From NCBI GenBank assembly GCA_021325275.1, contig JAJPHL010000053.1, forward strand, positions 1-48,658: DNA of 48,658 nucleotides, read 5' to 3'. Position 1 is the first letter of the stretch, and every line of letters starts with the position of its first letter. The notes beneath the pieces were generated by a model. That model saw nothing but the letters and a program-made list of their open reading frames with translations, had not been told where the DNA came from and did no database searches. Position numbers and translations under genes: made by a program. This document shows positions 1-17,581 of this stretch, in pieces. Origin of the DNA: Terriglobia bacterium. GTDB taxonomy: Bacteria > Acidobacteriota > Terriglobia > JAJPHL01.

Positions 1-1480
1 ACGCGACCCACGGCATCGTACGCGGTGCTGTCGAACTTGCCATCGGGATACGTTGTTTTCACCAGACGATTGTCGGCGTCGTAGGTGCTGGTGGTGACGT
101 TGTTGTTGGCATCCTTCACCGTGAGCTGATTGCCCGCCGCGTCGTAGCCGAAGACGGTCGTCTGACTTAAGGCATTTTGGACCTTCGTCCGGCGACCGGC
201 GTTGTCGTAGAAGTACGTTGTGGTGTTGCCCAGCGCGTCGACCGTCGAGGTCACCTGGCCGGCGGCATCGTAGTTCGTCGTTGTGGTGGCGGCATTCGGC
301 GTGGTCGGCGCGGCGGTGGTCGAGGTCAGGCGATTGATCGCGTCGTAGCCAAATGCCGTGACGATCCCGCGATTGGTGGTCTGCATGCGATTGCCGTTGG
401 CATCGTACTGCGTCACATCGGTCGTGTTGTCCGCGTAAGTCGTGGTCGTCAAGCGACCGTCGCTGTCGTAGACGTATTGCGTTTGATGGCCGAGTTCGTC
501 GGTGCGCACATCCACTTGGCCCAGCGTGTTGTAGTGCGTTTGCGTAAATGTGTTGTCGGGGAATGTGGTCTTGGTCAGTCGATTCTGACCGTCGTACGCA
601 TATTGCGTCAGCAACGTCTGCGGCGCTCCGTTGAAGGTGCGCATCACACTCTGCGTCAGGCGATTTCCGTTGCCGTCGTAGGTGTTGGTCGTGACGTTGG
701 TCAACGCGTCGGTTTGCATCAGCAAATTGCCGTTGTTGTCGTAGGCGAATGACGTGGTCTTACTGTTCGCGTCGGTCGTCGAAGTGACGCGGCCGAAGTT
801 GTCGTACGTATTGGTGGTGACGTTGCCCGCCGCATCCTTGGTCGTCAACAGATTTCCGTGCGTGTCGTAGGTGTTGGTCGTCACGTTGCCGCGCGGATCG
901 GTGATGGTTAACGGCTTGTTGAGCGCGTTGTAGGTGTATCCGGTGACGTTGCCGAGCGGATCGGTTTGGAAGCGCAGATTGCCGGCCGCGTCATAGGTGT
1001 AGTTGGTGGTGCGATTGAGCGCGTCGGTGTCGCTCGTCTTGTTGTCGCTGGCGTCGTAGGTGGAACTCGTGACGTGACCAAGCGCGTCGGTGGTTTGCAG
1101 GATGTTGCCGTCTTGATCGTACACGTAGGTCGTGGCATTTCCGTTGCGATCGGTGACGGTTTGCGTGTTCGCCGCCAGGTTGTACGTCATACCAATGCTC
1201 TTGCCGAGCGCGTCGGTGGTGCTGGTCAGGCGATTCGTCGTGGGATCGTAGCCCGCGGTGAGCCCGGATTGTCCGTTGGGCAGCGTGACGCCGGTGAGAT
1301 AGTCGCCGGGCGCGTACGCGAACGTTGTGGTGTTGCTGGTGCGATCGGTGTACGACGTGAGATCCGCGCCGGTATAAGCGTAGGTATTCGACTTGCCGTT
1401 CGGATCGGTGATTTGCGTAATTCGTCCTTGGGAATCGCGCACGAAAGTCACGCCCGCGCCGGTGGACGAAGCAATTCCGT
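1..1480 (-). repeat. YD/RHS repeat array of the giant protein
   Basis: Reading toward position 1, the translation shows 22 YD-type repeats of roughly 20-21 residues, such as NTYDTHGNLLTTKD and YVYDQDGNILQTTD. In Rhs/YD proteins these repeats form a spiral beta shell that encloses a C-terminal effector. The array is still running at position 1, so its true length is unknown. Confidence 0.92.
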
Positions 1481-4400
1481 TGGCCGAGAACGTCAACGTA
1501 TTCCCGTTGGTGTCCCTGATGCTCCGCACGCCCAGCACTTGATCGATCGTGTAGCTCAAGCCGTTGGCGAGCGTCAGCACAAACGTGGTGGGATCGTAGA
1601 GATTGCCGTCGAGGCCAATCAAGTTGATCGCCGCCGGCGGACTGCCGTCGATCAACGTGCTGCCGCCGTCGAGGGGCGCGAGCGTGGCGCCCTGCGTGCC
1701 CGCGGTGGCCTGGATTTGCTGGAAGGTCACGGTGGGATTGGTGATCGAGAGGAACTGCTGGCACTGCGGACTCGCTTGGGCCTGGAATTTGTACACCGTG
1801 TTGTTGGGGAACACCACGGTGACAATCTTCGTGTTCGTCGAACTGATGCAGAACTGCGGCGAAAGCGCGCTGTATTCGAGATCCTCGAACCAGTTGGCGC
1901 TCAGCGAGTGATTCTTCTGCAAGCGGATGTTGGTGACGGCCAAGCGCCAGCCTACGCCGAAGTCGCCGACGTTCTTGTCGCGCGAGTCGTAACTGCGCGT
2001 GATCGTGATCGGTAGTCCGGTGAGCGGCACGGTCATGTCGTTGAACGCCAGACTGAACACGCCGATCTTCATGTTGCGGCTCACCGTGACCGAGGAGGTC
2101 GCGGTGGTGACCTGACCCACCGAATCGGTGGAGGTCAACTGAATCTGATACGTGCCGTTCAGCAGCAGCGTGGGATCGAAAGTCGCCAGTGTGGCATTCG
2201 ACACCGCGCCGACACCCGTGGCCATGGTGACGTAATTCTGGGTTGGGCGCGTGGTGTCGAGCAAGGCGTATCGCAGAGACCACGCCCCGTCGGAAATGGT
2301 GGCGGTGATCGGCGTCGGTTGAGTAATTTCACTGCCGTCGACCAAGGACAACGTGACGGTTGGCGGCGGGCCGGGCAGCGGCAGCACCAGCACCGAAGTG
2401 GTTCCTGTGGTTTGCAGCGATCCGTCCTGAGCCAGCAGTTGCACCGAGTACGTGCCGGCGGCGCTGAAGGTCGCGGTCGTGGCGGCTTGCGACGGATTGG
2501 CGAACGTTACCGTCCCCGGACCGCTGACTTTGCTCCAGGCGATCGTCAGATTACGTCCCGAGGGCACACTCACGGCGCTGCCGTTCAGCACGGCGGTTGT
2601 ATTCGGCAACTGAATCGTTTGGGGCGGCGGCACGGTGACGCTGGGCGGCTGTGTCGCGGCCGCATTCAATGTGATGGTGGTGGTTTTGCTGGTGGTAAGG
2701 GCGCCGTCGTTCGCGCTGAGTTGCAACGTGTAGGTGCCGACGGAGCTGAGGGTCACTTGGGTGACCGCCGAATGCGGATTGGCGAACGTCGCCGCGCCCG
2801 GACCGCTCACTTGAGTCCAGGAAATCGTGAGCGTGCCGCCGATCGGCAAGCCGTCGTCGGTGACGCTGCCGTTCAGCGTGATCGTAGTGTTCGGCAGGGA
2901 GATGGTTTGTCCGCCATCGGCGTTGACCACCGGCGCTTGGTTGGTGGCCGCGGATGGTACCACGATCACCTGTACGCTGGCGCTGGAACTGGTCTGCGCG
3001 TTGCTGGCGGTCAACGTAAAGACGTACGTGCCGGCCGTGCTCAGGCCGCTCACCGACGTTGACAATTGTGTGGGCGTAGCGATGCTGGCGGTTGCGGGAC
3101 CGCTCGTTTGGGTCCACGCAAAAGTCAGCGCGGCGTTGCCGGGATCGCTGGCCGTACCGTGCAGCGTTGTGGTAGCGGTCGGTAACTGGATGCTCTGCGT
3201 CGATCCTGCGCTGACTACCGGTGTATCAACCACCGTGATCGTGACCGTTGAAGTCACCGTGGTCGCGCCATCGTTGGCGCTGAGTTGCAGGCTGTAGGTA
3301 CCGCCGCCAGGGAAGGTGGCGGTGCTTTGGGCTTTCGTCGGACTACCAAACACCACGCCGGCCGGGCCGGAGAGTTGGCTCCATTGAATGGTCAACGGCA
3401 ATCCCACTGGATCGGAGGCTGAGCCATTCAAGTTGGCGGCAACCGTTGGAATTTGCAGAGTCTGATTCGGTCCCGCGCTAACCACCGGTGGAGGCGGCGC
3501 GGTTACCGTTACCGTGGTGCTGGAATTGGCGGAGAACTGGCCGTTCGTCGCACTCAGTTGCAGCGTGAACGTGCCGGGGTTGGGGAAACTGACTTTGCTG
3601 ACAGCTTGTGACGGCGCGGTAAAGGTCACCGCACCCGGCCCGCTGAGTTCGGTCCAGGAAATGGTCAGCGGCGCACCGGCCGGATCGACGGCCGATCCTG
3701 CCAAAACAGCTTGCGCCGGCCACTGCACGCTTTGATTCGCGCCCGCATTTACCACCGGCGATTGTGTCGGTGTGTTTGAAGGCACGACAGTCACTTGGAA
3801 AGTCGCCGTCGTTGTGAACTGTGTGTTGCTGGCGGCGAACATGAAGGTGTACGCGCCGGTGACGGTGTTCGAGAACGTGATTTGCGTAGTAAGCGCCGTA
3901 GGATTGCTGAACACGGCTGCCGCAGGACCGCTCACTTGGCTCCAAGCGTAACTCAGCGTCTGGCCCACCGGATCGGTGGCGCTCGCTGTGACCATCACGG
4001 TATTCGTTGGCAGCTTGATGTTTTGGCCGTTGATCGGCAGGACCACCGGTGGTTGCAATGGCTGCGGGTTTACCACCACCGTGGTTGTGGCGTTGCCTGA
4101 GTTTTGTGAGTTGGCGGCGGTGAGTTGCAAAACGTACACACCCGCTACCGAGAAAGTAGCTTGCGTCGTCGCTTGTGACGGCGTACTGAACACGGTGGTC
4201 CCGCCCATGGGACCGCTCACTTGATTCCACAGCAATGTGAGCGTGCCGGCGCCTGGATCGCTAACCGTGCCGCTCAAGGTCACGCTGTTGGTGGGCAATT
4301 GGATCGACTGCCCGGGTCCGGCATTCACCACCGGCGGCTCGATGGTCTGCGGCAACACACCAACCGGCTTGACCGTTACGGTCATGTCGCTGACCGCGGT

Positions 4401-7400
4401 GGATGTCGCGTTCGATGCCTGCAACCGGAAGATGTACGTTCCTGGAGCCACGCCAAGCGCGACCGCAGTGGCGGTGGATGTGGGACTGGAGATCGTGGCA
4501 ATCGTTGGTCCGCTGAGCTGGCTCCAACTGACTTGTGGAGTTCCGCCGGAAGGATCGGTAGCGGTTCCAGTCAAATTGACCGAGTTGGCGGGTAGAGTAA
4601 TCGTCTGGTTTTGTCCGGCGCTGACGGTCACCTGCTCCAAGTTGGTCGAGCAAAGGCCGGTTTGGCCAGCGATGGCCGCGATTTCGGTCGGAGTCAGAGC
4701 CCGGTTGAACACGTGGACTTCATCGATACCGCCGTTAAAGCGTGCGCCGCCCGGGCGATTACCGAAGTACAAGGGCAGGTTGGCGGTGTTGGGTGTGATC
4801 GATCCAAAGTTGGCTTGATCCACCACGACTCCATTGATGTACATCACGGCGTTTCCGGATGGTTGATCGAAGGTCAACGCAACGTGCTGCCACACGCCCT
4901 GGACAATCGGGACGGCCAAGGGGCTGCAGCAACCGCCTCCATTGTTCGTAGCAAAGACGTGGTTATGGCCGGCGGTGTCCACGATATTCGCGTACAGCGC
5001 GCCCGGATAGTTGAACAACAGGTTAAACGGGTTGTTGGCGGCGCTGATCCAGAAGTGCGGTCCGAGTGTGCCGTTATTGTTGTATTCCGCGACCGGCGCG
5101 GAATTGCTCACAGTAGTGGGATTGATCCACGCGTCAATCGTGAAACTGGAAACATTCAGATTGCTCGATGCGGGCACCTTGACGTCCGCGTTCGTCCCGT
5201 TGAGGCTGAAGGCTTGTCCCTGCTTGCCGGTGGTGTAGGTGAGTGCGCCTTCCGCGATTCCGTTATCGCCGTGAATCGTGTCGGTGGTCGTGCCGTCCGC
5301 CGGCCACCAGCCGGCCATACCTGGCGCCGTGCAGACGCCGACGCTGTGGGCGTGAACCTCGCCGAAGCTGAACAACTCTCCGTCGTAACCAACCAAGCGC
5401 AACAAGTAATCGCCGGTGGTGGCGAACGCGGCCGTGGTCATGGGATTGCCCGACTGCGTGATGTTCACCTGCAATGCCGTAGAGTCCTGGTTGTTGTTAT
5501 TGTTCGATCCATACCCGACCGAGAACTCGAAATAATCTCCGGCATTCAACGTTCGGACGAAGCTGAATGGAACTCTTACGCCGGCGGTGACGGTGCCGGT
5601 CGCAAGAGTGGTTGCCGAAGTACCGCTATAGAGGATGACCGCCACGTCCGTTGTGGGTCCGATGGCGTCGGGGAAAAACTTTCCTTGCACCAGGAATGTT
5701 CCAGCGTTGGGAGCCGTCCAGCGCAAAACGCTATTCTCACCAATGGAACTCGGAAGCAACCCGAGAGTGTGCGGCGGTAGAGTCTGTTGTGTGTCGTTGG
5801 GATTGTTCGACGTCAAGTCGCCGGCGTTAGCCCAAAGCTGCGGGGCCGAGTTTCCGTTCTTTTGGTAGGTCGAATAAGGATTGGGCGCGTTCGCCTGTGA
5901 CGGATATAGCGTGAACGTGCCGCCGCGCGTCGGCTCCCAACCATAACTCCAAGCACCATTGGGATTGCTCTTCGGAGAGAAATCCAAACCAGAGTCGTAA
6001 GAGGGCGCGCCGAATGTTACGCGGCTTGGTCCAGACAGCACGGTCCAGAAAGAACTAAGGTGCCCGCCGACCGGCAAGCCGTCGTCGGTGACGATTCCGG
6101 GGAGGGTCGCGGAGTTAGGCTCCGTGACTTGCTGTTCCGTTCCCGGACTCACCACCGGCGCAGCGTTGGCTTGTATCGTAACGGTCGTGGTGGAACTGCT
6201 GGTCAGTTGCGTGTCGCTGGCGGTCAGTTGCAGGACGTAAACGCCCGGAGTACTCAGCGTCACGGTGGTGACAGGCGAGTTCGGATTGGCGAAGGACGCG
6301 GTTCCCGGTCCGCTCACTTGAGTCCAGAGCGAGGTGAGCGCGCCTCCTGTCGGGAGACCATCGTCAGTTACGGTTCCGTTCAGCGTAACGGTGGCGTTGG
6401 TAGCCGCGACCGAACCGATCCCCGACGGCGCCATGGCCATACCTTCCAGATTCTGGTTGGAAGCACCGAGGAGAAGCGTATCGAAGACTTGGGTCTGTGG
6501 GTTCCAGCGCACGTCCCAGACGTTGCCGTTGCCGAACTCTTCCTGCATGATGATGTCGCCCGTGAAGCTGACGAGTTCCGCGGCCGGGATTGCAAACAGA
6601 GTTTGCGTACCACCCGTGTTGGTGCCCGCCGCAAAATAGTTCTCGCCCGTGCCGATCACATTCATGTGCTCGGCATTGATTCCAATCTTGTACTGAACAA
6701 CCGTTCCGTTTTTATCGATCGTGTAGACGAAGCCGGAAGCGTTCTCGCCGCCGACCAGGATCTTGCCCGCCCATGGTCCATATCGGAACGTGTCGTTGGG
6801 AACCGTCACGAGACCTTCGGCCGTACCGCCCATATTGACGCTGGCCAGTTTGGTTGCCGTTCCAGGCAAGGGGAACGTTGAATTATCCGCGCTGATCCGC
6901 CAGACATTCGTCGTGGGATTGCCGTCGGTCATCACGATCAGATCGCCGCCCCATACTCCGGTTTTATCGATGTAGAGTTGTCCGCGCAGAAGCCCGGTCT
7001 CGTTGGGCAATGTAACCCAGGGGCTTTGGATATTGGAACCATCGGGCGTGACGCGGGTCACTTGTCCTGGTTTGCCGTTGCCCGTGAAGAACGTTCCCGC
7101 TGGAAATCCTCCGAGGCTCTTGCCGCCGCCGTCGTCGCGCGCCACCGTGAGGTAAACCTCGTCGGTGAGATTGCTGATCGTGGAGAACTGCGAGATCGAG
7201 CCGTCAGAGGCCAGCAAAGCAAAGTTGAAGGGCTTGCCGGTTGGATAATTCACCGACATCAGGACTTTGCCGGTGGGTGGGTGATAGTCCAAGCCAGTGG
7301 CAGCGTTGGTGCCGTTGGACAACTGAATCAAAGTCGGCGAAAGCGGCAGAGTATTGACGTTGCTGGGCAGCGCAATCGTCTGATTGGCGCCTGCATTCAC

Positions 7401-10400
7401 CACGGGTGCTTGATTTACCGTGGGCGCTGGATTGACGACAACCCGCGCCGTCGACGAGTCGGTGAACTGCGAATCCCTGACCGTGAGTTGCAACAAGTAG
7501 GTCCCCGCAACGCTAAACTTCGCGACCGTCACCGCCGTATTTGCCGGGGTGAACGTCACCGCGGCCGGGCCGGACAATTGCGTCCACGCAACGGTGAAAG
7601 ATCCGTTGGAGTCGGAGACCGCGCCGTTTAGCGTCACCTGCGAAGTTGGCAAGGTGATCGTTTGGTCCGGACCGGCGCTCACCGTAGGCGGCGTGCTGGT
7701 GCCGGCCGTCGCGGTGATTGTGATGTCGGAACTTTGCGTCTGTTTCAAGCCGCCGTAGACCGCGGTCGCGGTTAGACGCAAATCGTACGTTCCGGGCGAC
7801 GGGATGTGCGCCACTGTGCCGGTCGATTGCGGATTCGCGAACGTGACCATGCCGGGTCCGCTCACTTGACTCCAGACAACCGTGGAGACGGCCGTCGATG
7901 GCGTAACGGTCACGACGCCTTGCAGCGTGAGGTCCTGCGGCGTGAGCACACTTTGCCCCTGGCCCGCAGAAACGGTGAGTGTGAGCGCCGGCGCAACCGT
8001 AGTGGACGCGGTGGCGGAGAGCGGTCCGTAGGAATTGTTGTTCGTGTCGGACCACATGACCGATGCGCTTGCGGTTTCGGCGCCGGACACGGTCGAGGGA
8101 ATATTGAAGACCACGGTGGCCGTGCCCAATCCGCCGGCCGGGATCGGAGAGAGCGCCGGCGTTTGGCTGGTTCCATCAGGCATAACGACAGTCAGGGCCG
8201 GCGTCCCCGCCGCGTGACCCGAGTTCGTTACCGTGATTGTGTAGGTGATCGCCGTTCCGGCGACGGCGTTGGCGGGCGCGGCGAGTGTCACCCCGAGCAC
8301 CGGCAACACGCGTGTGCTGGTGATCGTGGCGCTGTCGGGTCCATACGCATTGTTGGCGGCGTCCTTCCAGGAAATCGCGGTTGCGAAGCTGAGCGCTTGA
8401 TTGTCGAGGCCCGTTAGGCGCGTGAGATACGCCGGATCGCTTTCGCCCGAGAGTTTTGCGACCGTCGAAGGCACCGGCCACGTTGTGGAGAACGGCAAAC
8501 TCTGCGAGGCCGTCAGCGTAAACGACGCGCTGCTCTGCGAATTATCGGGATTCGTTACCTGGAGACTGCCGGTAGCGGTCGCGCCGCCATTGTTTTGCAG
8601 TGTCGCCGAAATGTTGGCAGTGGATCCAGGCAGCAGTGTGCTCTGTACCGTCGGCGTGCCCGCCACGGCCGGCACGGATTGTTGCGCGGAGAGCGACGGC
8701 GTCAGCGGACCGTAGTTATTGCCGCGCGCGTCCTGCCATGTTGCTTGCAACGACGCCGTCCAGGTCTTGTTCGCCGCGGCTAGGCGCACCAAGTATTGAG
8801 TCGTGGTTTCCGAAGCGCCCTTCGCGGCGATCGCCGGGACGTTCCAATTCACCGTGGTGGAATAGCTTTGTGTCGACGCCAACGCGGGCACGGTGAGTGT
8901 TGTTGTCGTTCCGTCAGGCAGCGTGATGCTCGCGGTTATGTTGGAGGCCGCACCGCTGCCGTTGTTGACGATCGTCGCCGTCAGCGCCAGAACGCCGCCG
9001 GGATTCACGCTCGATGGACCCGTCAGTGAAACCGAGAGAACCGGCAAACTGCGCGTGGCTGTGACCGTCGAGTTCTCCGGTCCATAACTGCCGACGCCGT
9101 CGGTCCAAGTGAGTGAAGACGTGAACGTCAGGGTGGCGCGATCGAGCGATGTGAGACGCGTTTGGTACGCCGCGTCGCTCTCGCCGCTCTGCTTCGCGAC
9201 GTTGTTGGGCGTCACCCAAGTGGCCGAGACGGCAGTCGTTTGTCCCGCGGCCACCACGAAGGGACCAACATTGCTGAACGTGTCGGGATTCGTTACCTTC
9301 ACGTTCGCAGCGGTCGCATCCGCGCTGCCCGAGTTTTGCACGCCGAGGTTCACGGTCGCCGTGTCGCCGGGCAGCAGGACGCTTTGCACGGTCGGCGCTC
9401 CGCTGAGGATCGCGACGCGTTCTTGCGCACTGAACGTAGCGTTGGCTGGTCCGTAGGAAGTGTTCGCGGCGTCGAGCCACGTTGCCTTGAGGGACGCGGC
9501 CAGCGCGGCGTTGTTGGCCATGCTGATACGCGTGACGTACTGCGCCACGGTTTCGGCAGCACCGATGGGTGCGAGGGCCGGAACGGTCCAGTTGACCACG
9601 GTTGAGAAGTTCGCTCCGGCTGCGAGCGTCGTGAGCGGAAGCGTGGACATCGTTCCGTCAGGCAAAGTTACGACCGCCAAAACGCCGGAGGCCGCGCCGT
9701 TGCCCGTGTTCGTCAAAGTGGCGGTCAGCGCGAGTGTGCTTCCGGGCAGCGCCGTTGTGGGACCTGTGAGGCTGACCGTCAGCGCGGGGATCAAGCGCGT
9801 AGTCATCACGGCCGCCGAGGACGATTGCGGTCCGTAGTTGTTGGCGTTTGCGTCTTTCCACGCGAGCGTCGCGGTGGCCGTGATCTGGCCAGTGGCGGTC
9901 GCGGGAGGAATCGTGAAAGGGATCGAGATCGGAGCGATTCCGCCGGCCGCGATGGACGCAGGCAGCGTGGGTGTGCTCGTGGTGCCGTCAGGCAGCAGCA
10001 CCGAAAGTGTCGGAGTGGCCGCCGCGGCATGACCCACGTTTTGGATCGTCGCGGTATAGGAGATCGCGTCGCCGGAATTCGCCGTCGCCGGTCCGGTGAG
10101 ACTGATCGCCAGGATCGGCAGGACGCGCGTGCTGGTAACCGCGGCGCTGGTCGGTCCATAGGCGTTCGTCGCGGTGTCTTTCCACGAGGTCGCGGTGTTG
10201 AAACTCAGAGTCTGATAGTCGAGACCTGCCAAACGGAGTTGATACGCGGCATCTGTTTCGCTCGGTTGCTTCGCGACGGTGGAAGGAACCGCCCATGTCG
10301 TCGAAGCTTGCGTCGACTGTTGAGCGGCCACCGTAAAAGTCGCGCTGGCGGAGGAGTTGTCCGGGTTCGTCACCTGGAAACTTCCGGCCGTCGCCGTGGT

Positions 10401-13400
10401 ATTGCCGGTATTTTGCATCGTCGCGCTGATGTTGGCGGTCGATCCCGGCAGTAACGTGCTCTGGACCGTCGGTGTTGCGGCGACAACCGGCACAACTTGC
10501 TGCGTGGAGGACGACGACGTCAGCGGGCCGTAAGAATTGCCGTGCGCATCTTGCCACGTGACGGGGAGCGATGAGTTCAAGGTCTTGATCGCCGCCGCGA
10601 GTCGCGCCAGGTATTGCGCCGTGGTTTCCGAAGCACCCTTCGCCGTCAGCGCCGGGACCGTGAAGTTGACCGTCGTGGAATAGTTCTGTCCCGCCGCGAG
10701 TGCCGGCACGGTTAAAGTGGAAGTGGTTCCGTCCGGCAACGTCACAATCGCGGAAATGCCGGAAGCCGCGCCGCTACCGTTGTTGGTGATCGTGGCGTTG
10801 AGCGCGAGCGTGGTTCCCGGACTCACGGTGGACGGTCCCGTCAAGTTGACCGAGAGGATCGGCAAGCTGCGCGTGCTCGTGATTGTCGCGGTCTCGGGTC
10901 CGTAGTTGCCGGTTCCATCGGTCCATGCAACGGAGGTCGAAAAACTGAGCACGGCTTTGTCGAGCGCGGAGAGACGCGTGATATACGCCGCGTCCGTCTC
11001 GCCGCTTTGCTTCGCGACGGTGTTCGGCGATACCCAGGTCGTGGAGGCGGAAACGGTTTGTCCCGCGGGCACGGCGACGGAATTGGCGCTGGCGGTAGTG
11101 TTATCCGGATTCGTCACCACGGTGGTGGTCCCGGTCGCGTCCGCGCCGCCTGTGTTCTGCATGCTCACGTTGACGGTCGCGGTGTCGCCGGGCCGCAGCG
11201 TGCTTTGCACCGTAGGCGTCACGTTGAGGATCGCCACGCGTTCCTGCGCGCTGAACGATTGATTGACCGGGCCATAAGAAGTATTGGCGGCGTCGAGCCA
11301 AGTGGCATTGATCGACGCGGCCAGCGTGGCCGTGTTCGCCGCGCTCAAACGCGCGAGGTATGACGCGGTTGATTCCGTGCTTCCGATCGGCGTGATCGCC
11401 GGCACCGTGTGGTTGATCGTGGCGCTGAAGTTCGCGCCGGCCGCCAGCGTGGTCACGCTCAGCGGATTGGTGGTTCCATCCGGCAAAGTCACAACCGCGG
11501 AAATACCCGACGCCGCGCCGTTGCCCGCGTTGGTGAGAGTCGCGGTCAACGGAAGCGTGCTGCCTGGCTTGGCCGTCGATGGCCCCGTCAGAGTTACGGT
11601 GATGGAAGGAACTTGCCGCGTCGTCTGCACGGCCGCGGTGGAGGAAAGCGGTCCATAGACGTTGTTGTGGATGTCCTTCCACGAGAGCGACGCGGTCGCG
11701 AGAAGTTGGCCTGTCGCGGTCGACGACGGAATCGTGAAACTGATCGTCGCGGACGCGCTTCCGCCCGGCGCGATGGTTCCCGCCGGACTCAGCGCCGGAG
11801 TGGCCGTGCTTCCATCAGGGAGCACGACGGAGAGCGTGGGAGACGCCGCCGCGCCGTGACCGATATTCTGCACCGTCGCCGTGTAGGCGATCGTGTTTCC
11901 AGAGATGGCGGACGGCGGTCCCACGAGACTAATCGAGAGAACCGGCATCGTGCGCGTGCTCGTTCCCGGGTTGTTCGTAGGACCGTAGAGCGTTCCCGCG
12001 GAATCCTTCCAGCCAAGCACCGCGTTGAACGCCAGAGAAGCGCCATCAAGACCGCTCAGGCGAGCCTGATACGCGGAATCGGATTCGTTAGACTGCTTCG
12101 CCCCGGTGAACGGCGCGATCCACGTGGACGTCACGGCGTTCGATTGTCTTGTGGTGAGCGAAAACGGCGTGATGACTTTCTTCGAATTATCGGGATTGAC
12201 GATCGTGACGTCGGTTTCGATCGCGTTTCCTTTACCGGTGTTGGTGGTCGCGAAGGATACGGTCGCCGTGTCGCCCGGAGTCATCGTGCTCGGAACGGTC
12301 AGTGTTCCCGACACGATCGGCACGTTTTCTTTCAATCCGCTGAACTGCTGATTCACCGCGCCGTAAGAGTTTCCCTGAGCGTCTTGCCAGTTCGCGGTGA
12401 TCGACGCGGTGAGCGAGGTACCATCGGCATTCGCCAACCGCGCCAGGTAAGCGGAGGTGCTCTCGTTCGCGCCGATGGGCGCGATACCCGGCACCGGAGC
12501 GTTGATCGTACCGACAAAACTCATTCCCGCATTCAGCGAATTCACCGCCAGCGTCCGGGTTGAACCGTCGGGCAGTGTGACAATCGCGGAAATTCCCGAG
12601 GCCGTCGCGCTTCCAACGTTCGTCACTGTGGCGGTGAGTGCCCACGTCCCGCCGGGACTCACGCAAGTCGATGCGGAGAGCGAAACGGTCAGCCGGGGCA
12701 GTTGAAGGTGACTGAACGACGTCAGGCTGATCGGCAAATACGGCTGATTCGAAGCGTCGGTGTAAGTGATCGATCCGGTGGACGTGAACAGACGGCCGTC
12801 GACGCTGCCGAGGCGCGCCTCGTACTGGGCACTCGATTCGTTGGACTGCCGCGCCAGATACGTGGGCGCCGTTTCGTTGAAAGTCGCCGTGAAAGGCGAG
12901 CCGCTTCCCAGCGACGCAACGTTTTGGGTCCCCGTGGCGGGCGTGGTTCCGTCAAACGATTCATTGATCGCGATGCTCGTGGCCGCGGTTTGTCCCGCGT
13001 TGTTGAGCGTCACGCTGACGACGTAGCTTTGTCCCGGCAGGACGGTCGCCGGTTGGCTTTGCGTCGCGGTGAGTTGAACCGGCGTGGGGAAAATGTGCGC
13101 GCCATCGGCGATGATCGCGACGATTGTGCCGAAGCCGGGATGTCCGGGATCGGAACTATATGCGGGCGACGAATCGACCTTCAGCACGGCGAGCGCCGCG
13201 ATGTTCCCGTATGTTTCGCTGCCGCTTTTGTTGATCGCGTTCGAAATGATCACGCCGATATACGCGGGCAAGGAATCCGGCGGGAAACTGTTGCCGCCCT
13301 TGCTGCTCCAACAACTGTCGTCCAGCGTGCTGCCCGACGCCGTCGGTTCACACACTGTCGGCGGCCCAATTTCGTTCTCCGCAAATCCCTTGAACGACGG

Positions 13401-15230
13401 ATTCGCGTTGTACGCGCCGCCCGTTACTTGACTCGCCCACTGCGATCCCCAGAAATTCACGTCCTGACCGAGATGGAGTCCACCGGAGTTGCCGCCCCAC
13501 ACGACAAATTGCGATGAGAGATACACATCGATCGGCGACGCCGCGGATGACGCGTTGTAGTTCGCATCGCCCGCGAACGACACTTGCATCTGCGCACCCG
13601 CTTGGGCCGCCGAGGACGCCAGCGTCAGCGACGCCGTCGCGACACCGGACGTATTGGTGTTCGCCGATGCTTGTACGGATCCGACGGCGAAGGTCACGCT
13701 TTCGTTCGCCAACGGCATGCCATGAGCGTCTTGCAGGAGCGCGGTGACGGTGGACGCGACACTGGTTCCCAACATCGTGGAGCCGGTGTAGCGGAGAATC
13801 GTGTTTTCCTTGGAAATCATGATCGTGGCCGACGCGCTCACTGCGGGATACGCTGCCGTTCCCGCAAAACTCGCGGTCACCGAAGCCGATCCCGCGCCGA
13901 TGGCCGCGAAGGTGGTTTGCGCTTGGCCGTTCGCGTCGGTGGTCGCCGACAGCGTTCGTCCCAACAGAGTGAACGATATCGCTTGTCCGGAAAGCCCGTT
14001 GCCGTTTACGTCGGTCAACAGAGCGGCGGCGCGAATCTGGTCGTCGACGGAGACGGAAGTCTGGCCCACGTAGACGAGACTATCGGCCGGCGTCTGACTG
14101 GGAGTGCAGGCGCCGGCGCCGGACCAATTCGCGGTCACCGTCGAGGTGACGGAAGCACCGGTGAGATTCGCAAGCGACGCCTTCACGGCGTCGCTGCCCA
14201 CTTGCGCGCTCGTGTAGCTGAACGGCGCGTTGCCATTGCTGTCGCTGGTCGCTTGCGCGGTCTTTCCGGTGTTCGGGCCGGACGTCACGCTAAAAGAAAC
14301 TCCGGCATTGGCGAGCGGCAGCGCCGCCGCGTCCGCGATTTGCGCCGTGAGTTGAACCGAAACGCCTGTTTCGGTGATCGTGCCGTCGGGCGTCAGCGTG
14401 ACGCTCGCCGAGGGACTCTCGATCCCGGTGGTTCCCACAGGCCGCCATGCCAGCGAGCGATTTCCGCGGCAACCTAAGTCGAATCCTCCCGTGTCGAGCA
14501 CATGCGAGGTGTCCAGAAACACGCTGGGATTGCCGCCGACACTGACGGTGATTTGCGGAATTTGCGTGTTGCCAGCGGGAATCGATCCGCCGCAACTGAC
14601 GATCGGCGATCCGCTGGTGACAAAATTCGAAGCGGCTGTTTGCGTCAGAATCACGGAACTACCGGCAGGAATGGTGAAGCTTCCCCACAGACTGAAACTC
14701 GGGCCGGGGCGCTGCAAATTCACGGTAACGCTATCCACGTTGATCGCGGACGAGGTGGTGTTGTCTAAGCGGATCGCGCCGGCATTATACGAATTGCCGC
14801 TGCCGCCGCTGCCGATGAAGACGGTATTCGGCGATCCTTGCCAGGGAGTAGGGAAATTCGGAGACGCGCTGGTGCTATCCGCATAACCCACCGACGCGGC
14901 GATGCCATTCACCGCGGGCGGCGCACTGCGAACTACTTGCGGTCGATTTTGACGCAAGGCTTTCGGCGCCGCGCCGAGCGACGCGACGGCCCCGACCGAC
15001 CGAGGCGCGGCTATCGGGCTCACGGTTGCGGGACTTGCCGAGATCGGACCTGATGTTGTCGGACCTGATGCGATCGGACGAGGAGGAATCATCCGGCCCG
15101 CTACCACCGGACCTAGCGGCAGCGTTGCCACCGAGATCGCGTAGGCCAGCACATACGCCAGGACTCGACGCGCCAGAACAGCAGTTTTTGGAGAATATGA
15201 GTTAGAAAAGAATCCATCTTTTCGGAGCAT
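1..15230 (-). CDS. Giant secreted Ig/CARDB/PKD/YD-repeat protein (3' end outside window)
   Basis: One open frame runs from ATG 15230 to the left edge without a stop, giving at least 5,076 codons. A GGAGG lies 8 nt before the ATG. Approximate modules by residue: signal peptide 1-45; Pro/Ser/Ala linker; beta-rich region 134-264; three invasin-like Ig domains 277-568; unassigned domain with WGGNSGG 568-712; about 14 CARDB-type modules 712-2411; PKD-like domains 2414-3070, one interrupted by a propeller-like module (2632-2934); a DFSPKSNPNGAWSYG domain 3074-3288; LamG_3-type domain (GMAGWWPADG start) 3300-3524; eight PKD-like domains 3534-4281; Ig-like domain; Rhs N-terminal module (PITITRSYDS) about 4384-4578; 22 YD repeats to the edge. 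Such proteins are usually surface or secreted adhesins or polymorphic-toxin carriers. The C-terminal tip that would decide this lies beyond the window, and no immunity gene or secretion partner is visible here. Confidence 0.93.
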   Translation of the reverse strand, partial: MLRKDGFFSNSYSPKTAVLARRVLAYVLAYAISVATLPLGPVVAGRMIPPRPIASGPTTSGPISASPATVSPIAAPRSVGAVASLGAAPKALRQNRPQVVRSAPPAVNGIAASVGYADSTSASPNFPTPWQGSPNTVFIGSGGSGNSYNAGAIRLDNTTSSAINVDSVTVNLQRPGPSFSLWGSFTIPAGSSVILTQTAASNFVTSGSPIVSCGGSIPAGNTQIPQITVSVGGNPSVFLDTSHVLDTGGFDLGCRGNRSLAWRPVGTTGIESPSASVTLTPDGTITETGVSVQLTAQIADAAALPLANAGVSFSVTSGPNTGKTAQATSDSNGNAPFSYTSAQVGSDAVKASLANLTGASVTSTVTANWSGAGACTPSQTPADSLVYVGQTSVSVDDQIRAAALLTDVNGNGLSGQAISFTLLGRTLSATTDANGQAQTTFAAIGAGSASVTASFAGTAAYPAVSASATIMISKENTILRYTGSTMLGTSVASTVTALLQDAHGMPLANESVTFAVGSVQASANTNTSGVATASLTLASSAAQAGAQMQVSFAGDANYNASSAASPIDVYLSSQFVVWGGNSGGLHLGQDVNFWGSQWASQVTGGAYNANPSFKGFAENEIGPPTVCEPTASGSTLDDSCWSSKGGNSFPPDSLPAYIGVIISNAINKSGSETYGNIAALAVLKVDSSPAYSSDPGHPGFGTIVAIIADGAHIFPTPVQLTATQSQPATVLPGQSYVVSVTLNNAGQTAATSIAINESFDGTTPATGTQNVASLGSGSPFTATFNETAPTYLARQSNESSAQYEARLGSVDGRLFTSTGSITYTDASNQPYLPISLTSFSHLQLPRLTVSLSASTCVSPGGTWALTATVTNVGSATASGISAIVTLPDGSTRTLAVNSLNAGMSFVGTINAPVPGIAPIGANESTSAYLARLANADGTSLTASITANWQDAQGNSYGAVNQQFSGLKENVPIVSGTLTVPSTMTPGDTATVSFATTNTGKGNAIETDVTIVNPDNSKKVITPFSLTTRQSNAVTSTWIAPFTGAKQSNESDSAYQARLSGLDGASLAFNAVLGWKDSAGTLYGPTNNPGTSTRTMPVLSISLVGPPSAISGNTIAYTATVQNIGHGAAASPTLSVVLPDGSTATPALSPAGTIAPGGSASATISFTIPSSTATGQLLATASLSWKDIHNNVYGPLSSTAAVQTTRQVPSITVTLTGPSTAKPGSTLPLTATLTNAGNGAASGISAVVTLPDGTTNPLSVTTLAAGANFSATINHTVPAITPIGSTESTASYLARLSAANTATLAASINATWLDAANTSYGPVNQSFSAQERVAILNVTPTVQSTLRPGDTATVNVSMQNTGGADATGTTTVVTNPDNTTASANSVAVPAGQTVSASTTWVSPNTVAKQSGETDAAYITRLSALDKAVLSFSTSVAWTDGTGNYGPETATITSTRSLPILSVNLTGPSTVSPGTTLALNATITNNGSGAASGISAIVTLPDGTTSTLTVPALAAGQNYSTTVNFTVPALTAKGASETTAQYLARLAAAIKTLNSSLPVTWQDAHGNSYGPLTSSSSTQQVVPVVAATPTVQSTLLPGSTANISATMQNTGNTTATAGSFQVTNPDNSSASATFTVAAQQSTQASTTWAVPSTVAKQPSETDAAYQLRLAGLDYQTLSFNTATSWKDTATNAYGPTSAAVTSTRVLPILAISLTGPATANSGDAISYTATIQNVGHAAAATPTLSVLLPDGTTSTPTLPASIAAGGIAPISIPFTIPPATATGQITATATLAWKDANANNYGPQSSSAAVMTTRLIPALTVSLTGPTTALPGSTLALTATLTNTGNGAASGVLAVVTLPDGTMSTLPLTTLAAGANFSTVVNWTVPALAPIGAAETVAQYVTRISMANNAALAASLKATWLDAANTSYGPANATFSAQERVAILSGAPTVQSVLLPGDTATVNLGVQNSGSADATAANVKVTNPDTFSNVGPFVVAAGQTTAVSATWVTPNNVAKQSGESDAAYQTRLTSLDRATLTFTSSLTWTDGVGSYGPENSTVTATRSLPVLSVSLTGPSSVNPGGVLALTATIVNNGSGAASNITASITLPDGTTTTLTVPALASTQSYSTTVNWNVPAIAAKGASETTTQYLVRLAAANKTWTASLQATWQDARGNNYGPLTPSLSAQQSVPAVAGTPTVQSTLLPGSTANISATLQNNGGATATGSLQVTNPDNSQSSASFTLTASQSLPFSTTWPVPSTVAKLSGESDPAYLTRLTGLDNQALSFATAISWKDAANNAYGPDSATITSTRVLPVLGVTLAAPANAVAGTAITYTITVTNSGHAAGTPALTVVMPDGTSQTPALSPIPAGGLGTATVVFNIPSTVSGAETASASVMWSDTNNNSYGPLSATASTTVAPALTLTVSAGQGQSVLTPQDLTLQGVVTVTPSTAVSTVVWSQVSGPGMVTFANPQSTGTVAHIPSPGTYDLRLTATAVYGGLKQTQSSDITITATAGTSTPPTVSAGPDQTITLPTSQVTLNGAVSDSNGSFTVAWTQLSGPAAVTFTPANTAVTVAKFSVAGTYLLQLTVRDSQFTDSSTARVVVNPAPTVNQAPVVNAGANQTIALPSNVNTLPLSPTLIQLSNGTNAATGLDYHPPTGKVLMSVNYPTGKPFNFALLASDGSISQFSTISNLTDEVYLTVARDDGGGKSLGGFPAGTFFTGNGKPGQVTRVTPDGSNIQSPWVTLPNETGLLRGQLYIDKTGVWGGDLIVMTDGNPTTNVWRISADNSTFPLPGTATKLASVNMGGTAEGLVTVPNDTFRYGPWAGKILVGGENASGFVYTIDKNGTVVQYKIGINAEHMNVIGTGENYFAAGTNTGGTQTLFAIPAAELVSFTGDIIMQEEFGNGNVWDVRWNPQTQVFDTLLLGASNQNLEGMAMAPSGIGSVAATNATVTLNGTVTDDGLPTGGALTSLWTQVSGPGTASFANPNSPVTTVTLSTPGVYVLQLTASDTQLTSSSTTTVTIQANAAPVVSPGTEQQVTEPNSATLPGIVTDDGLPVGGHLSSFWTVLSGPSRVTFGAPSYDSGLDFSPKSNPNGAWSYGWEPTRGGTFTLYPSQANAPNPYSTYQKNGNSAPQLWANAGDLTSNNPNDTQQTLPPHTLGLLPSSIGENSVLRWTAPNAGTFLVQGKFFPDAIGPTTDVAVILYSGTSATTLATGTVTAGVRVPFSFVRTLNAGDYFEFSVGYGSNNNNNQDSTALQVNITQSGNPMTTAAFATTGDYLLRLVGYDGELFSFGEVHAHSVGVCTAPGMAGWWPADGTTTDTIHGDNGIAEGALTYTTGKQGQAFSLNGTNADVKVPASSNLNVSSFTIDAWINPTTVSNSAPVAEYNNNGTLGPHFWISAANNPFNLLFNYPGALYANIVDTAGHNHVFATNNGGGCCSPLAVPIVQGVWQHVALTFDQPSGNAVMYINGVVVDQANFGSITPNTANLPLYFGNRPGGARFNGGIDEVHVFNRALTPTEIAAIAGQTGLCSTNLEQVTVSAGQNQTITLPANSVNLTGTATDPSGGTPQVSWSQLSGPTIATISSPTSTATAVALGVAPGTYIFRLQASNATSTAVSDMTVTVKPVGVLPQTIEPPVVNAGPGQSIQLPTNSVTLSGTVSDPGAGTLTLLWNQVSGPMGGTTVFSTPSQATTQATFSVAGVYVLQLTAANSQNSGNATTTVVVNPQPLQPPVVLPINGQNIKLPTNTVMVTASATDPVGQTLSYAWSQVSGPAAAVFSNPTALTTQITFSNTVTGAYTFMFAASNTQFTTTATFQVTVVPSNTPTQSPVVNAGANQSVQWPAQAVLAGSAVDPAGAPLTISWTELSGPGAVTFTAPSQAVSKVSFPNPGTFTLQLSATNGQFSANSSTTVTVTAPPPPVVSAGPNQTLQIPTVAANLNGSASDPVGLPLTIQWSQLSGPAGVVFGSPTKAQSTATFPGGGTYSLQLSANDGATTVTSTVTITVVDTPVVSAGSTQSIQLPTATTTLHGTASDPGNAALTFAWTQTSGPATASIATPTQLSTSVSGLSTAGTYVFTLTASNAQTSSSASVQVIVVPSAATNQAPVVNADGGQTISLPNTTITLNGSVTDDGLPIGGTLTISWTQVSGPGAATFANPHSAVTQVTLSSVGTYTLQLSANDGALTTSKTTTITLNAAATQPPSVTVPPPQTIQLPNTTAVLNGSAVSVPSGRNLTIAWSKVSGPGTVTFANPSQAATTATFSAAGTYSVQLLAQDGSLQTTGTTSVLVLPLPGPPPTVTLSLVDGSEITQPTPITATISDGAWSLRYALLDTTRPTQNYVTMATGVGAVSNATLATFDPTLLLNGTYQIQLTSTDSVGQVTTATSSVTVSRNMKIGVFSLAFNDMTVPLTGLPITITRSYDSRDKNVGDFGVGWRLAVTNIRLQKNHSLSANWFEDLEYSALSPQFCISSTNTKIVTVVFPNNTVYKFQAQASPQCQQFLSITNPTVTFQQIQATAGTQGATLAPLDGGSTLIDGSPPAAINLIGLDGNLYDPTTFVLTLANGLSYTIDQVLGVRSIRDTNGNTLTFSANGIASSTGAGVTFVRDSQGRITQITDPNGKSNTYAYTGADLTSYTDRTSNTTTFAYAPGDYLTGVTLPNGQSGLTAGYDPTTNRLTSTTDALGKSIGMTYNLAANTQTVTDRNGNATTYVYDQDGNILQTTDALGHVTSSTYDASDNKTSDTDALNRTTNYTYDAAGNLRFQTDPLGNVTGYTYNALNKPLTITDPRGNVTTNTYDTHGNLLTTKDAAGNVTTNTYDNFGRVTSTTDANSKTTSFAYDNNGNLLMQTDALTNVTTNTYDGNGNRLTQSVMRTFNGAPQTLLTQYAYDGQNRLTKTTFPDNTFTQTHYNTLGQVDVRTDELGHQTQYVYDSDGRLTTTTYADNTTDVTQYDANGNRMQTTNRGIVTAFGYDAINRLTSTTAAPTTPNAATTTTNYDAAGQVTSTVDALGNTTTYFYDNAGRRTKVQNALSQTTVFGYDAAGNQLTVKDANNNVTTSTYDADNRLVKTTYPDGKFDSTAYDAVGR
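2390..4630 (-). repeat. Eight tandem PKD/REJ-like domains
   Basis: Eight consecutive units of 80-95 residues share the pattern [VN]AGxxQ[ST]IxLP, then LxGxxxDP, then W.Q.SGP, then a closing GTYxLQLxAxD strand. This is the PKD/chitinase-type Ig fold common in secreted bacterial proteins. The units are diverged in DNA sequence but in strict register. They form a stalk between the LamG domain and the Rhs core. Confidence 0.85.
6430..7335 (-). other. Propeller-like module inserted into a PKD domain
   Basis: Residues about 2632-2934 of the giant protein resemble NHL/YVTN-like propellers, with stretches such as GLDYHPPTGKVLMS, FFTGNGKPGQVTRV and GPWAGKILVGGENASG. The flanks are the two halves of one PKD-like domain: NAGANQTIALP lies before it and ATVTLNGTVTDDG after it. 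The propeller therefore sits in the loop between the first and second strands. The exact fold needs structure prediction. Confidence 0.65.
8000..13095 (-). repeat. CARDB-type module array with a 1.8 kb five-module super-repeat
   Basis: About 14 modules of roughly 120 residues fall into three types. Type A carries TLPDGTT and YLARL. Type B carries a PTVQSxLxPG start, NPDN and an E-x-D-x-AYxxRL motif. Type C carries NxGHxAA. In protein order they read B-A-B-C, then A-B-A'-B'-C, then A-B-A'-B'-C. The last two sets begin near 11613 and 9793 and each spans about 1.8 kb (about 605 residues), so five modules were copied as a block. CARDB is a cell-adhesion-related bacterial Ig-like fold; family assignment is by pattern only. 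Confidence 0.75.
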
Positions 15231-15571
15231 TAACTTTTCCTCCGCCTCACTTTTTAGACACCGTAAGCAAATAGCCTACGCAGCGTAGTCTCAAGAATGT
15301 TCCGAAAGAAAACGAAATCCGACGCGTAGTACGCCGGAGCTAACTCGCTTTCTTACCAAGTGCGTATTTTGTTGGCACTATCAGTCCTATTCGGGACAAT
15401 CTGGCGCACAACTTCGTGTCTGTTCCGTTCAGAGATCGATCTGTTGACGCGCGATAATCGCGACGCGTTCCAGGCCTGCTCCGAGCGGAGCACATTCTTG
15501 CATCGCAGGTCGCCGCGTGACAATTCCCGAAAGGTTAGGGAAACCACTGACTTTGAGATAGGGGTACGCGC
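15231..15571. promoter_or_regulatory. Gene-free 341 bp upstream of the giant gene
   Basis: No convincing gene is present; the short frames here lack coding character. On the minus strand, TTGAGA (15294-15289) and TATTTG (15273-15268) could be promoter elements, but the 15-bp spacer is short. Between them lies a perfect 6+1+6 palindrome, CTACGC-A-GCGTAG (15276-15288), a plausible operator. A second inverted repeat, TGCTCCG-AG-CGGAGCA (15477-15492), follows the LuxR gene; it has only a 2-nt loop and no T-run, so it is a weak terminator candidate. Confidence 0.35.
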
Positions 15572-16270
15572 TTACTTGCTTGCTTTGAGGGAACTGCGAG
15601 GATGGTGGAGCGCGAAAAAATCTAGATCGTCGACGTTACCGGGCAAGCTTGTTAGTTCGCGGCGACTCTCCGCGCCTGCCTTCGACAACATTTCCGAGAT
15701 GTAAGTCTTCACCGTGCCCTCGGTGAGTTTGAGCACTGAGGCAATCTCGCGGTTCGATAGGCCGCGCGCGATCAGCGCGAGAATCGTTCGCTGACGCGGA
15801 GTCCAGTCGATCTGCGGCGAATCGTGACGCGGCTGCAAGGCCCGTTGCAGGTTGGCCAGCACGGGAACAAGTTCCGAGGGAAGACAGAGCGATCCTTGAG
15901 CGACCATTTCGACCGCGCTGACCAGCGCCCGATCCACTTGATCCATACGAACGGCGCCGAGAACGCCCGACGCCATCAGCACAGCGAGATCGAGTTCTTG
16001 ATCCACCAGGTTGTCGCGGACGAGCAAGAGAAACTTCGCCTGCGGATACGCGAGCGCCAAAGAACGGACAATCTTTTCGGGGGGCTTCGGAATCGCCGTG
16101 GTGTCGATAAGAAACACATCGGGAGCCGGATGTTGGCCGGACTCCGCGCAATGCCTCCAATCTTCCGGGAGCTCCGCTGTCATTCCCGCTTCCGTGAGAA
16201 TTTCTCGCAAGCCTCGCGCCCCGATCAAATGGCTGGAAATGATTTGGACCCTCCAGGCGTGATGAGTCAC
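15572..16270 (-). CDS. LuxR-family regulator with degenerate receiver domain
   Basis: This is a 232-residue two-domain protein. The N-terminal ~120 residues resemble a response-regulator receiver. The C-terminal domain (about 152-215) is a clear LuxR/GerE HTH with LTPRQ-like WTPRQRTILALIARGLSNREIA and GTVKTYISEML features. The acidic pair expected after the first receiver strand is missing (IISSHLIGARGL), although an Asp remains in VFLID, so phosphorylation is doubtful. The start is GTG, overlapping the upstream TGA as GTGA, which indicates translational coupling to the membrane gene before it. It is the last gene of a run beginning with three 7-helix membrane proteins and may act on that run or on the giant gene downstream. 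The target is unknown. Confidence 0.85.
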   Translation of the reverse strand: MTHHAWRVQIISSHLIGARGLREILTEAGMTAELPEDWRHCAESGQHPAPDVFLIDTTAIPKPPEKIVRSLALAYPQAKFLLLVRDNLVDQELDLAVLMASGVLGAVRMDQVDRALVSAVEMVAQGSLCLPSELVPVLANLQRALQPRHDSPQIDWTPRQRTILALIARGLSNREIASVLKLTEGTVKTYISEMLSKAGAESRRELTSLPGNVDDLDFFALHHPRSSLKASK

Positions 16271-16728: not shown

Positions 16729-17505
16729 TTAGATTTCTTCCTTTGCTCGATTGAAGACGGCGGCGAGGGTTAGTGGGCTGCCGCTTGCACGGATCAATTC
16801 CCTTCCGCGGATTTCAGCCGCCCGAGGAATTTCAAAACACGTGACGGCGTACAACCAAAGCATTTCCATAATCAGAAACCCCGCTTGAGGCCCGTGTTGT
16901 GCGAAATTCGAAATCAGCGGTGTCCGGCCATGCACGTCGAGGGCAAACTGGTTCATGGCTATACTGGAACTGAAAATGGCGCTGTTCAAACCAAGGGCCG
17001 CAAGGAGCATGCGTGGCTGTAGCGCATGCTCAGATCGGCCGAGCCGGGCACAAGCGATCCAAGCCAGAATAATCAGCAGCGCGGACGGCGCGTAAAGGAA
17101 GAGGTGATACTCAAAGCGACCCTGGCGGCTGAACAACCGGGGAATGCAGTATGAAACGAAGACTATTCCTGACGCAACGACGACGATGAAACGCGATAAA
17201 ACGAAAGCCGATCTCGGAATCTGTAGGCTTGATCCTTCCAACGCCAACTCGATAAACTGCATAGCGGCCAGGGACACCAGCAATCGCGAGGGATAATCCG
17301 CAACCCAGTATACCAGGAAGTATTCAGGAGAGGAGGCACCCGATTTGAAGTAGAACACGAGCCGAAGCGGATCCAGAATAAGAAAGGACGCGAGGTAGAG
17401 AAACGCGTACGGGTATTTTGAGAGCCCCCGCCTGCGCCAAGCCATGAAGAGCGTCAGGCAGATTAGCCCCGTGGTGACGAAACCTAGTCCCTCCCAAAAA
17501 CTCAT
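16729..17505 (-). CDS. Seven-helix membrane protein, tandem copy 3
   Basis: This is a 258-residue integral membrane protein with about seven hydrophobic helices, paralogous to the next two upstream genes. Shared marks are an N-terminal MxFW-type start, YPYAxLYLASxLxLDPLR, QFIELALExS, an SYxIPRL segment after helix 4, LQPR before helix 6, and a cytoplasmic-looking tail RASGS...LAAVFNRAKEE. The start at 17505 is chosen over an upstream in-frame Met at 17670 because AGGAGG precedes it at proper spacing, paralogue starts align there, and the longer form would run through the promoter and the end of copy 2. No known family was recognised. This copy is the most diverged at the C-terminus (ends EEI) and is fused head-to-tail to the 153-residue gene. 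Confidence 0.85.
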   Translation of the reverse strand: MSFWEGLGFVTTGLICLTLFMAWRRRGLSKYPYAFLYLASFLILDPLRLVFYFKSGASSPEYFLVYWVADYPSRLLVSLAAMQFIELALEGSSLQIPRSAFVLSRFIVVVASGIVFVSYCIPRLFSRQGRFEYHLFLYAPSALLIILAWIACARLGRSEHALQPRMLLAALGLNSAIFSSSIAMNQFALDVHGRTPLISNFAQHGPQAGFLIMEMLWLYAVTCFEIPRAAEIRGRELIRASGSPLTLAAVFNRAKEEI

Positions 17506-17575: not shown

Positions 17576-17581
17576 CTCTCG

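What the first reader, a model, noticed from the sequence alone, without database searches (positions are those of the whole stretch)
1..15230. Single open frame of at least 5,076 codons encoding a mosaic YD-repeat giant
One minus-strand frame runs from an ATG with a strong ribosome site to the window edge. The YD array has not ended, so the full protein should exceed 5,500 residues. The order (Ig, CARDB, PKD, propeller, LamG, PKD, Rhs) is unusually rich for an Rhs-type protein. The missing C-terminal tip would decide toxin versus adhesin.
Basis: seen in the sequence. Interest (0 to 1): 0.8.

Follow-up and report, generated by a model that had tools for sequence, protein, structure and literature searches.

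The report
Giant stalked Rhs toxin, metallopeptidase tip
The window holds most of one gene for a ~5,800-residue secreted bacterial protein, a long adhesive stalk carrying a YD-repeat cage; its missing end, found on another contig of the same genome, looks like a protein-cutting toxin followed by a likely self-protection gene, so it is a very large but recognisable weapon used between bacteria.

Summary
Observation confirmed: window 3-15230 (-) is one open frame of 5,076 codons (ATG, strong ribosome site, no stop, coding-type GC3 throughout). I followed it off the window. The first 105 bp are identical to the start of contig C25 of the same genome. The frame continues there for 770 codons to a TAA, implying about 5,812 residues. 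The pieces were analysed apart. The distance from the window edge to the cage end (529 residues) fits complete relatives (536-545), so the join is probably right.

After an Rhs-associated core ending in DPSG comes a 207-residue domain with HEIGHQLGL (zinc-metallopeptidase signature). A four-TM, 218-residue ORF starts 12 nt later, followed by duplicated orphan genes and an rhs remnant. In relatives the core is 32-59% identical but the tip is always replaced: 113 tips fall into 103 families. Tips with HExxH are enriched (16/113 versus 0.35 expected), and their next gene is usually exported or membrane-bound (13/14 versus 33/70).

Best reading: a Sec-exported, stalked Rhs polymorphic toxin whose tip attacks envelope proteins of neighbouring cells. 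It is a new member of a known kind. The stalk is adhesin-like, so 'toxin versus adhesin' becomes 'both'. Activity and immunity are untested.

The parts
15219..15252 (-). ribosome-binding site and ATG start of the giant gene
   Evidence: sequence gaggcggaggaaaagttaATG
15096..15230 (-). N-terminal Sec-type signal segment (residues 1-45): positively charged start, hydrophobic 17-45
   Evidence: hydropathy; relatives G421 and G369 also begin with signal-peptide-like segments
14406..14903 (-). distinct N-terminal domain (residues 110-275), no Pfam or PDB match
   Evidence: 63% identical domain only in G421:C103; no PDB hit
13521..14393 (-). three Big_1 Ig-like domains (about residues 280-570)
   Evidence: Pfam PF02369 E=1e-15, 3 stretches
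8016..13073 (-). array of 14 CARDB-like units of about 115-125 residues (residues 720-2405)
   Evidence: Pfam PF07705 and iterative self-profile
7302..7976 (-). PKD-like units (residues 2419-2643), the last one interrupted by the insert below
   Evidence: self-profile, Pfam PF22352
6414..7301 (-). propeller-like insert inside a PKD-like unit (residues 2644-2939); fold unproven
   Evidence: PKD halves at 2608-2643 and 2940-3019; homologous segment in G369; single-sequence fold failed, pLDDT 33
5355..6413 (-). PKD-like units with a second insert (residues 2940-3292)
   Evidence: self-profile
4677..5333 (-). Laminin-G/ConA-like lectin domain (about residues 3300-3518)
   Evidence: Pfam PF13385 E=4.7e-19
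2385..4628 (-). eight K319L-like PKD units (residues 3535-4282)
   Evidence: Pfam PF22352 E=2.4e-102, self-profile
1917..2075 (-). DUF6531, entrance of the Rhs cage (residues 4386-4438)
   Evidence: Pfam PF20148
3..1916 (-). YD/RHS repeat cage, first part; continues on contig C25 (L004:2-1690)
   Evidence: Pfam PF05593 E=8e-64; NCBIfam TIGR01643 and RHS_core; PDB Rhs cages 7q97, 8h8a, Tse15, Tse5, Tre23
1..105 (-). exact 105-bp overlap with the start of contig C25; beyond it lie the cage end (L004:106-1690), the tip (L004:1691-2311), the candidate immunity ORF (L004:2327-2983) and the orphan array (L004:3067-7250)

Best explanation
It is a Sec-exported, surface-displayed Rhs polymorphic toxin of about 5,812 residues. 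Steps: (1) the signal segment takes it across the inner membrane; (2) an Ig/CARDB/PKD/lectin stalk of about 4,300 residues spans the cell surface and binds glycans or neighbours; (3) a YD-repeat cage of about 1,220 residues closes around the last 207 residues; (4) an aspartyl self-cleavage at the D-x3-G-x22-DPSG plug frees the tip on contact; (5) a hydrophobic helix at the start of the tip helps it into the target envelope; (6) an HExxH zinc-metallopeptidase domain cuts envelope proteins there; (7) the membrane protein encoded 12 nt downstream protects the producer. Shown by sequence: the frame, the domain order, the cage, the plug motif and its fixed spacing, the HExxH motif, replacement of the tip among relatives, and the neighbouring ORF. 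Inferred: export across the outer membrane, cleavage, delivery, protease activity and its target, and immunity.
For: Cage: TIGR03696, RHS_core and YD repeats; PDB matches to toxin-filled Rhs cages. Tip replacement: core 32-59% identical to this one while tips show no similarity beyond noise; 113 complete tips form 103 families; tip GC 0.541 versus 0.597 for the cage part. Plug motif spacing of 27 between the two Asp in most close relatives. HEIGHQLGL with weak Reprolysin/Matrixin matches and karilysin/MMP profile matches at E=0.03-0.1; same AAHE-GH segment in two G220 proteins. HExxH in 16 of 113 tips versus 0.35 in shuffles, and 0 in the core. Next gene with a TM or signal segment in 13/14 HExxH tips versus 33/70 others, p=0.002. 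ORF of 218 aa with 4 TM 12 nt downstream. Downstream array: two 31%-identical genes and an rhs remnant 72% identical to the window. Orthologue G421 has the same stalk order and a 59%-identical core but another tip. Precedents: VgrG2b/Tpe metallopeptidases act in the periplasm with exported immunity proteins (PMC6899460); M. xanthus Rhs4/Rhs5, about 4,000 aa with signal sequences, act in kin discrimination (PMC10433427).
Against: The tip reaches no curated family cut-off. Its HExxH lacks the third histidine of metzincins (T in that place). The 218-aa ORF matches no immunity family, nor the membrane proteins beside other metallopeptidase tips. The route across the outer membrane is unknown; no T6SS sheath gene was found. 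The two parts of the gene lie on two contigs, joined only by a 105-bp overlap. The neighbour-gene test was made after the pattern was seen and uses crude hydropathy.
Confidence: 0.68

Rival explanations
1. A giant adhesin or matrix protein: the YD cage and stalk serve attachment, and the C-terminal peptidase is a housekeeping domain that trims the protein itself or degrades nutrients.
For: About 4,300 of 5,812 residues are adhesin-type domains. The nearest full-length relatives of the tip domain, in G220, lie in large proteins without YD repeats. The genome neighbourhood is metabolic.
Against: The tip boundary lies exactly at the DPxG plug, and relatives carry unrelated tips there, many of toxin type (PT-HINT, M35, M10, weak Tox-REase-9). 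A self-trimming or nutritional domain would be expected to be conserved with its core.
Confidence: 0.17
2. The window gene and the C25 fragment are two different Rhs genes: the 105-bp overlap is a shared repeat, and the real tip of the window gene is elsewhere.
For: The assembly breaks exactly in a repetitive YD array. Another rhs remnant lies 7 kb into C25, and another Rhs gene end lies on C45.
Against: The 105-mer occurs only at these two contig ends in the genome. Frame and repeat register are kept. The distance from own residue 5076 to the cage end is 529, against 536-545 in five complete relatives. The window's other end also overlaps a contig end, C65, by 56 bp, so overlapping ends mark neighbours in this assembly. 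G421's best core match (59%) and its N-terminal match (63%) are both to this pair.
Confidence: 0.08
3. A bacterial teneurin-like protein (TLP) rather than an Rhs toxin.
For: The best PDB match of the cage end is a teneurin-like protein, 9ifo, E=1.3e-9. TLPs also have variable adhesion domains, a toxin tip and an immunity gene (PMC13018210).
Against: No FN-plug/NHL pair precedes the YD shell: the cage starts with DUF6531 directly after PKD units, and Pfam's teneurin YD-shell model gives no match. The front part of the cage matches Rhs proteins far better (7q97 E=5e-34 versus TLP 1e-10).
Confidence: 0.07

Closest known systems
Large signal-peptide Rhs proteins of Myxococcus xanthus (Rhs4, Rhs5; about 4,000 aa), as reviewed in PMC10433427
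   Same: Very large, with a signal sequence, an Rhs cage and a C-terminal toxin; likely on the cell surface and independent of T6SS
   Different: Longer (about 5,812 aa); CARDB/PKD/lectin stalk; no sign of a prophage location was looked for or found; no competition data
Metallopeptidase toxin tips of polymorphic toxins (Tox-MPTase1-5, PMC3482391) and the VgrG2b/Tpe1 family (PMC6899460)
   Same: HExxH peptidase domain at the C-terminal end of an Rhs or T6SS carrier, followed by a small gene; immunity proteins of the Tpe type are periplasmic or membrane-bound
   Different: No profile match to any of these families; matrixin/reprolysin-like motif HEIGHQLGL; neighbour with four TM segments; no T6SS carrier
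T6SS Rhs cages with solved structures (7q97, 8h8a, Tse15, Tse5, Tre23)
   Same: YD cage with a DPxG plug and an encaged C-terminal toxin
   Different: No PAAR/VgrG front; giant stalk instead; plug Asp spacing 27 instead of the classic 22 (classic value from my own knowledge)
Bacterial teneurin-like proteins (PMC13018210)
   Same: YD shell, toxic variable tip, adhesive N-terminus, downstream immunity gene
   Different: No NHL/FN-plug superfold recognised here

Membership tests
Rhs/YD-repeat polymorphic toxin | YD-repeat cage with Rhs-associated core domain | tested here: met
   TIGR03696 56.7 bits (cut-off 32.5), RHS_repeat 211 and 153 bits
Rhs/YD-repeat polymorphic toxin | tip after the core replaced between relatives while the core is conserved | tested here: met
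   core 32-59% identical, tips unrelated; 113 tips in 103 families
Rhs/YD-repeat polymorphic toxin | DPxG aspartyl-protease plug before the tip | tested here: met
   D-x3-G-x22-DPSG, spacing shared by most close relatives; the cleavage itself was not tested
Rhs/YD-repeat polymorphic toxin | immunity gene directly downstream | tested here: inconclusive
   218-aa, 4-TM ORF 12 nt downstream; no known immunity family
Rhs/YD-repeat polymorphic toxin | orphan tip/immunity array downstream | tested here: met
   paralogous genes L004:3842-4549 and 6179-6733 (31%) and an rhs remnant at 7005-7250
Zincin metallopeptidase | HExxH | tested here: met
   HEIGH in the tip; E-values below 0.05 but under curated cut-offs
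Metzincin (matrixin/reprolysin) | HExxHxxGxxH/D third ligand | tested here: not met
   HEIGHQLGLST: T at the third-ligand position; the G220 relatives also lack it
Tox-MPTase1-5 (PMC3482391) | family profile match | tested here: not met
   no such hit among Pfam matches to E=5 for the tip; assumes that these models are in the Pfam copy
T6SS-delivered Rhs | PAAR/VgrG front and a T6SS in the genome | tested here: not met
   no PAAR/VgrG in Pfam; no VipA/TssB in the genome
Bacterial teneurin-like protein | FN-plug + NHL + YD-shell superfold | tested here: not met
   no teneurin-model or NHL match; DUF6531 directly before the YD repeats
Sec-exported large Rhs | N-terminal signal peptide | tested here: inconclusive
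   charged start and hydrophobic 17-45; no signal-peptide predictor available

The most novel reading that the evidence does not exclude
In this phylum, giant Sec-exported stalked YD cages are a general weapon platform (Rhs cores in 201 of 396 genomes). Metallopeptidases are one of its main warhead classes, and they act in the target's periplasm, which is why their immunity proteins are exported or membrane-bound. The tip studied here founds a new HExxH toxin family neutralised by a four-TM membrane protein.
Probability: 0.35. Interest if true: 0.6.

Novelty: new member of a known kind. Interest (0 to 1): 0.42.

Why it matters
It shows what a very large 'mosaic' bacterial protein is for: most of its length is reach, and the last 4% carries the weapon. 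The same platform, with about a hundred unrelated tips, occurs across a poorly cultured bacterial phylum with almost no work on cell-to-cell killing (one literature search for that phylum returned three papers). The tips are a ready list of candidate toxins and immunity genes. The link between metallopeptidase tips and exported neighbours gives a testable rule for where such toxins act.

Tried and rejected
- Structure of the tip: not run.
- Single-sequence folds of the 'propeller' and the N-terminal domain: pLDDT 33, useless.
- L014 (Acidobacteriota contig) as a second example of tip plus membrane protein: its peptidase frame is a 121-aa fragment and its membrane ORF is unrelated, so not used.
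- The G274 hit to the tip (L010) looks like a chance match without HExxH, rejected.
- PHROGs, PADLOC, plasmid and viral-contig searches with the tip: nothing useful.
- The idea that the gene is unique to this genome: rejected by G421, G369 and others.
- Metzincin membership: rejected for lack of the third ligand.
- The window's other genes (TonB receptor, quinoproteins, multicopper oxidases, a D-Ala ligase relative) show no link to the finding.
- Organism name: not established. The phylum is probably Acidobacteriota, from the one weak tip relative with a name and a weak match to a 'non-PQQ' quinoprotein subfamily named for that group.

Full report
Observation. The minus-strand frame at window 3-15230 is real: 5,076 codons, ATG, strong ribosome site, open at the window edge. 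By base composition the chance of no stop is about 10^-63. GC3 stays at 0.70-0.82 along the whole length, so there is no hint of a frameshift. Pfam and NCBIfam confirm Big_1, CARDB, PKD, Laminin_G_3, PKD, DUF6531 and RHS in that order. An iterative self-profile counts 14 CARDB-like units (residues 720-2405) and about 14 PKD-like units. It lies inside a PKD-like unit, split at residues 2643/2940, and recurs in relative G369.

Beyond the window. The window is contig C74 of a 6.86-Mb, 75-contig genome. Its first 105 bp equal the first 105 bp of contig C25 in opposite orientation and occur nowhere else in the genome. The frame continues in register for 770 codons to TAA at L004:2312-2314, an implied 5,812 residues. 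The pieces were searched apart. Three things support the join. The window's other end also overlaps a contig end (C65, 56 bp). From own residue 5076 to the core end is 529 residues, against 536-545 in five complete relatives (computed). The cage from DUF6531 to the core end is about 1,220 residues here and about 1,214 in G369.

The tip. The C25 part ends the YD array with an Rhs-associated core (TIGR03696) and the plug DTYEG-x22-DPSG. The Asp-to-Asp spacing of 27 is shared by most close relatives. Then follow 207 residues: a hydrophobic helix (about 1-28), then a domain with AAHEIGHQLGL. Pfam gives Reprolysin_4 (E=0.005), Reprolysin_3 (0.014) and Matrixin (0.029), all under cut-off. A three-sequence profile finds karilysin and stromelysins at E=0.03-0.1. 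The third metzincin ligand is absent, so I call it an HExxH (zincin-type) peptidase, not a metzincin. Two proteins of G220 without YD repeats carry a full-length relative of the domain.

The locus. An ORF of 218 aa with four hydrophobic segments starts 12 nt after the stop, behind a Shine-Dalgarno-like AAGGCGGAG. After it come an orphan ORF (3067-3858), two paralogous genes (3842-4549 and 6179-6733; 31% identity, found nowhere else in the genome), other small ORFs, a repeated noncoding block (4764 and 6066), and an rhs remnant 72% identical to the window. An MFS-transporter gene ends the array. Displaced cage-and-tip fragments next to a main Rhs gene also occur in relatives (L051, L068, L074).

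Relatives. Cores related to this one occur in 201 of 396 genomes of the phylum, several in uninterrupted frames of 3,600-5,615 codons. G421 is an orthologue: it has the same N-terminal domain (63%), the same order of Big_1, CARDB, PKD, LamG, PKD and DUF6531, and a 59% identical core (front and end lie on two contigs there too), but an unrelated tip. Across 113 complete tips I found 103 families, and the first 45 residues are more hydrophobic than the rest (19 tips, p=0.001). Recognised tips include PT-HINT, Aspzincin M35, Matrixin M10 and a weak Tox-REase-9. Sixteen tips hold HExxH against 0.35 in shuffles. Where an ORF starts within 100 nt, it has a TM or signal segment in 13 of 14 HExxH tips and in 33 of 70 others (Fisher p=0.002; tight spacing 9/9 versus 21/45, p=0.003). 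This was noticed before it was tested, rests on hydropathy alone and takes the longest nearby ORF, so it is a lead, not proof.

Mechanism. The evidence fits a polymorphic toxin: constant delivery part, exchangeable tip, plug with the aspartyl-protease motif, neighbouring gene, orphan array. The front is a signal segment, not PAAR/VgrG, and the genome lacks the T6SS sheath protein, while several secretins are present. Delivery would therefore resemble the surface Rhs proteins of Myxococcus (PMC10433427) more than T6SS Rhs (PMC8636562). Metallopeptidase effectors of the VgrG2b/Tpe1 group act in the periplasm and are countered by periplasmic or membrane immunity proteins (PMC6899460); a four-TM neighbour and the survey trend point the same way here. 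Export across the outer membrane, target and immunity are inferences.

Comparison and novelty. Rhs polymorphic toxins, metallopeptidase tips and adhesive N-terminal domains including laminin-G are all described (PMC3482391). Teneurin-like proteins share the plan but need an NHL/FN-plug in front of the shell (PMC13018210), which is not seen here. New here are the size, the 14-unit CARDB stalk, a tip that no curated family recognises, and the phylum-wide tip survey. I rate it a new member of a known kind.

Noticed in passing
window 6414-7301 and 5500-5999 (-): Two domains (propeller-like and a carbohydrate-binding-like stretch) appear inserted within PKD-like units rather than between them; the first insertion recurs in G369.
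   Followed up: partly
window 15575-16270 (-): A gene with a C-terminal LuxR-type DNA-binding helix lies just upstream of the giant gene on the same strand; a possible regulator.
   Followed up: no
window 16732-17670 and 18434-19201 (-): Two tandem-duplicated multi-TM proteins of unknown family sharing the ending 'RASGS..LAAVFNRAKEE'; no Pfam match; in a stretch of lower GC.
   Followed up: no
L004 (C25) 4764 and 6066: A repeated noncoding block (GCGCGATAGGAACCTAATCA and flanks) lies between the orphan immunity-like genes; possibly the mark of cassette duplication.
   Followed up: partly
L013 (C45:8000-15580) 6157-7581 (-): A second Rhs gene end in the same genome with a different, unrelated tip; its front is lost at a contig end.
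   Followed up: partly
L022 and L023 (G220): Two large proteins without YD repeats carry full-length relatives of the HExxH tip domain at their C-termini.
   Followed up: partly
113 tips from L004, L013, L030-L156: HExxH is strongly enriched in Rhs tips of this phylum, and the genes after such tips mostly encode exported or membrane proteins.
   Followed up: yes
window 34420-36858 and 41973-44174 (-): Two multicopper-oxidase-like genes in one neighbourhood with large ORFs (27.7-33.1 kb) that match no Pfam family.
   Followed up: no
window 48603-48658: The right end of the window overlaps the end of contig C65 by 56 bp, so the neighbouring contig can be named.
   Followed up: yes
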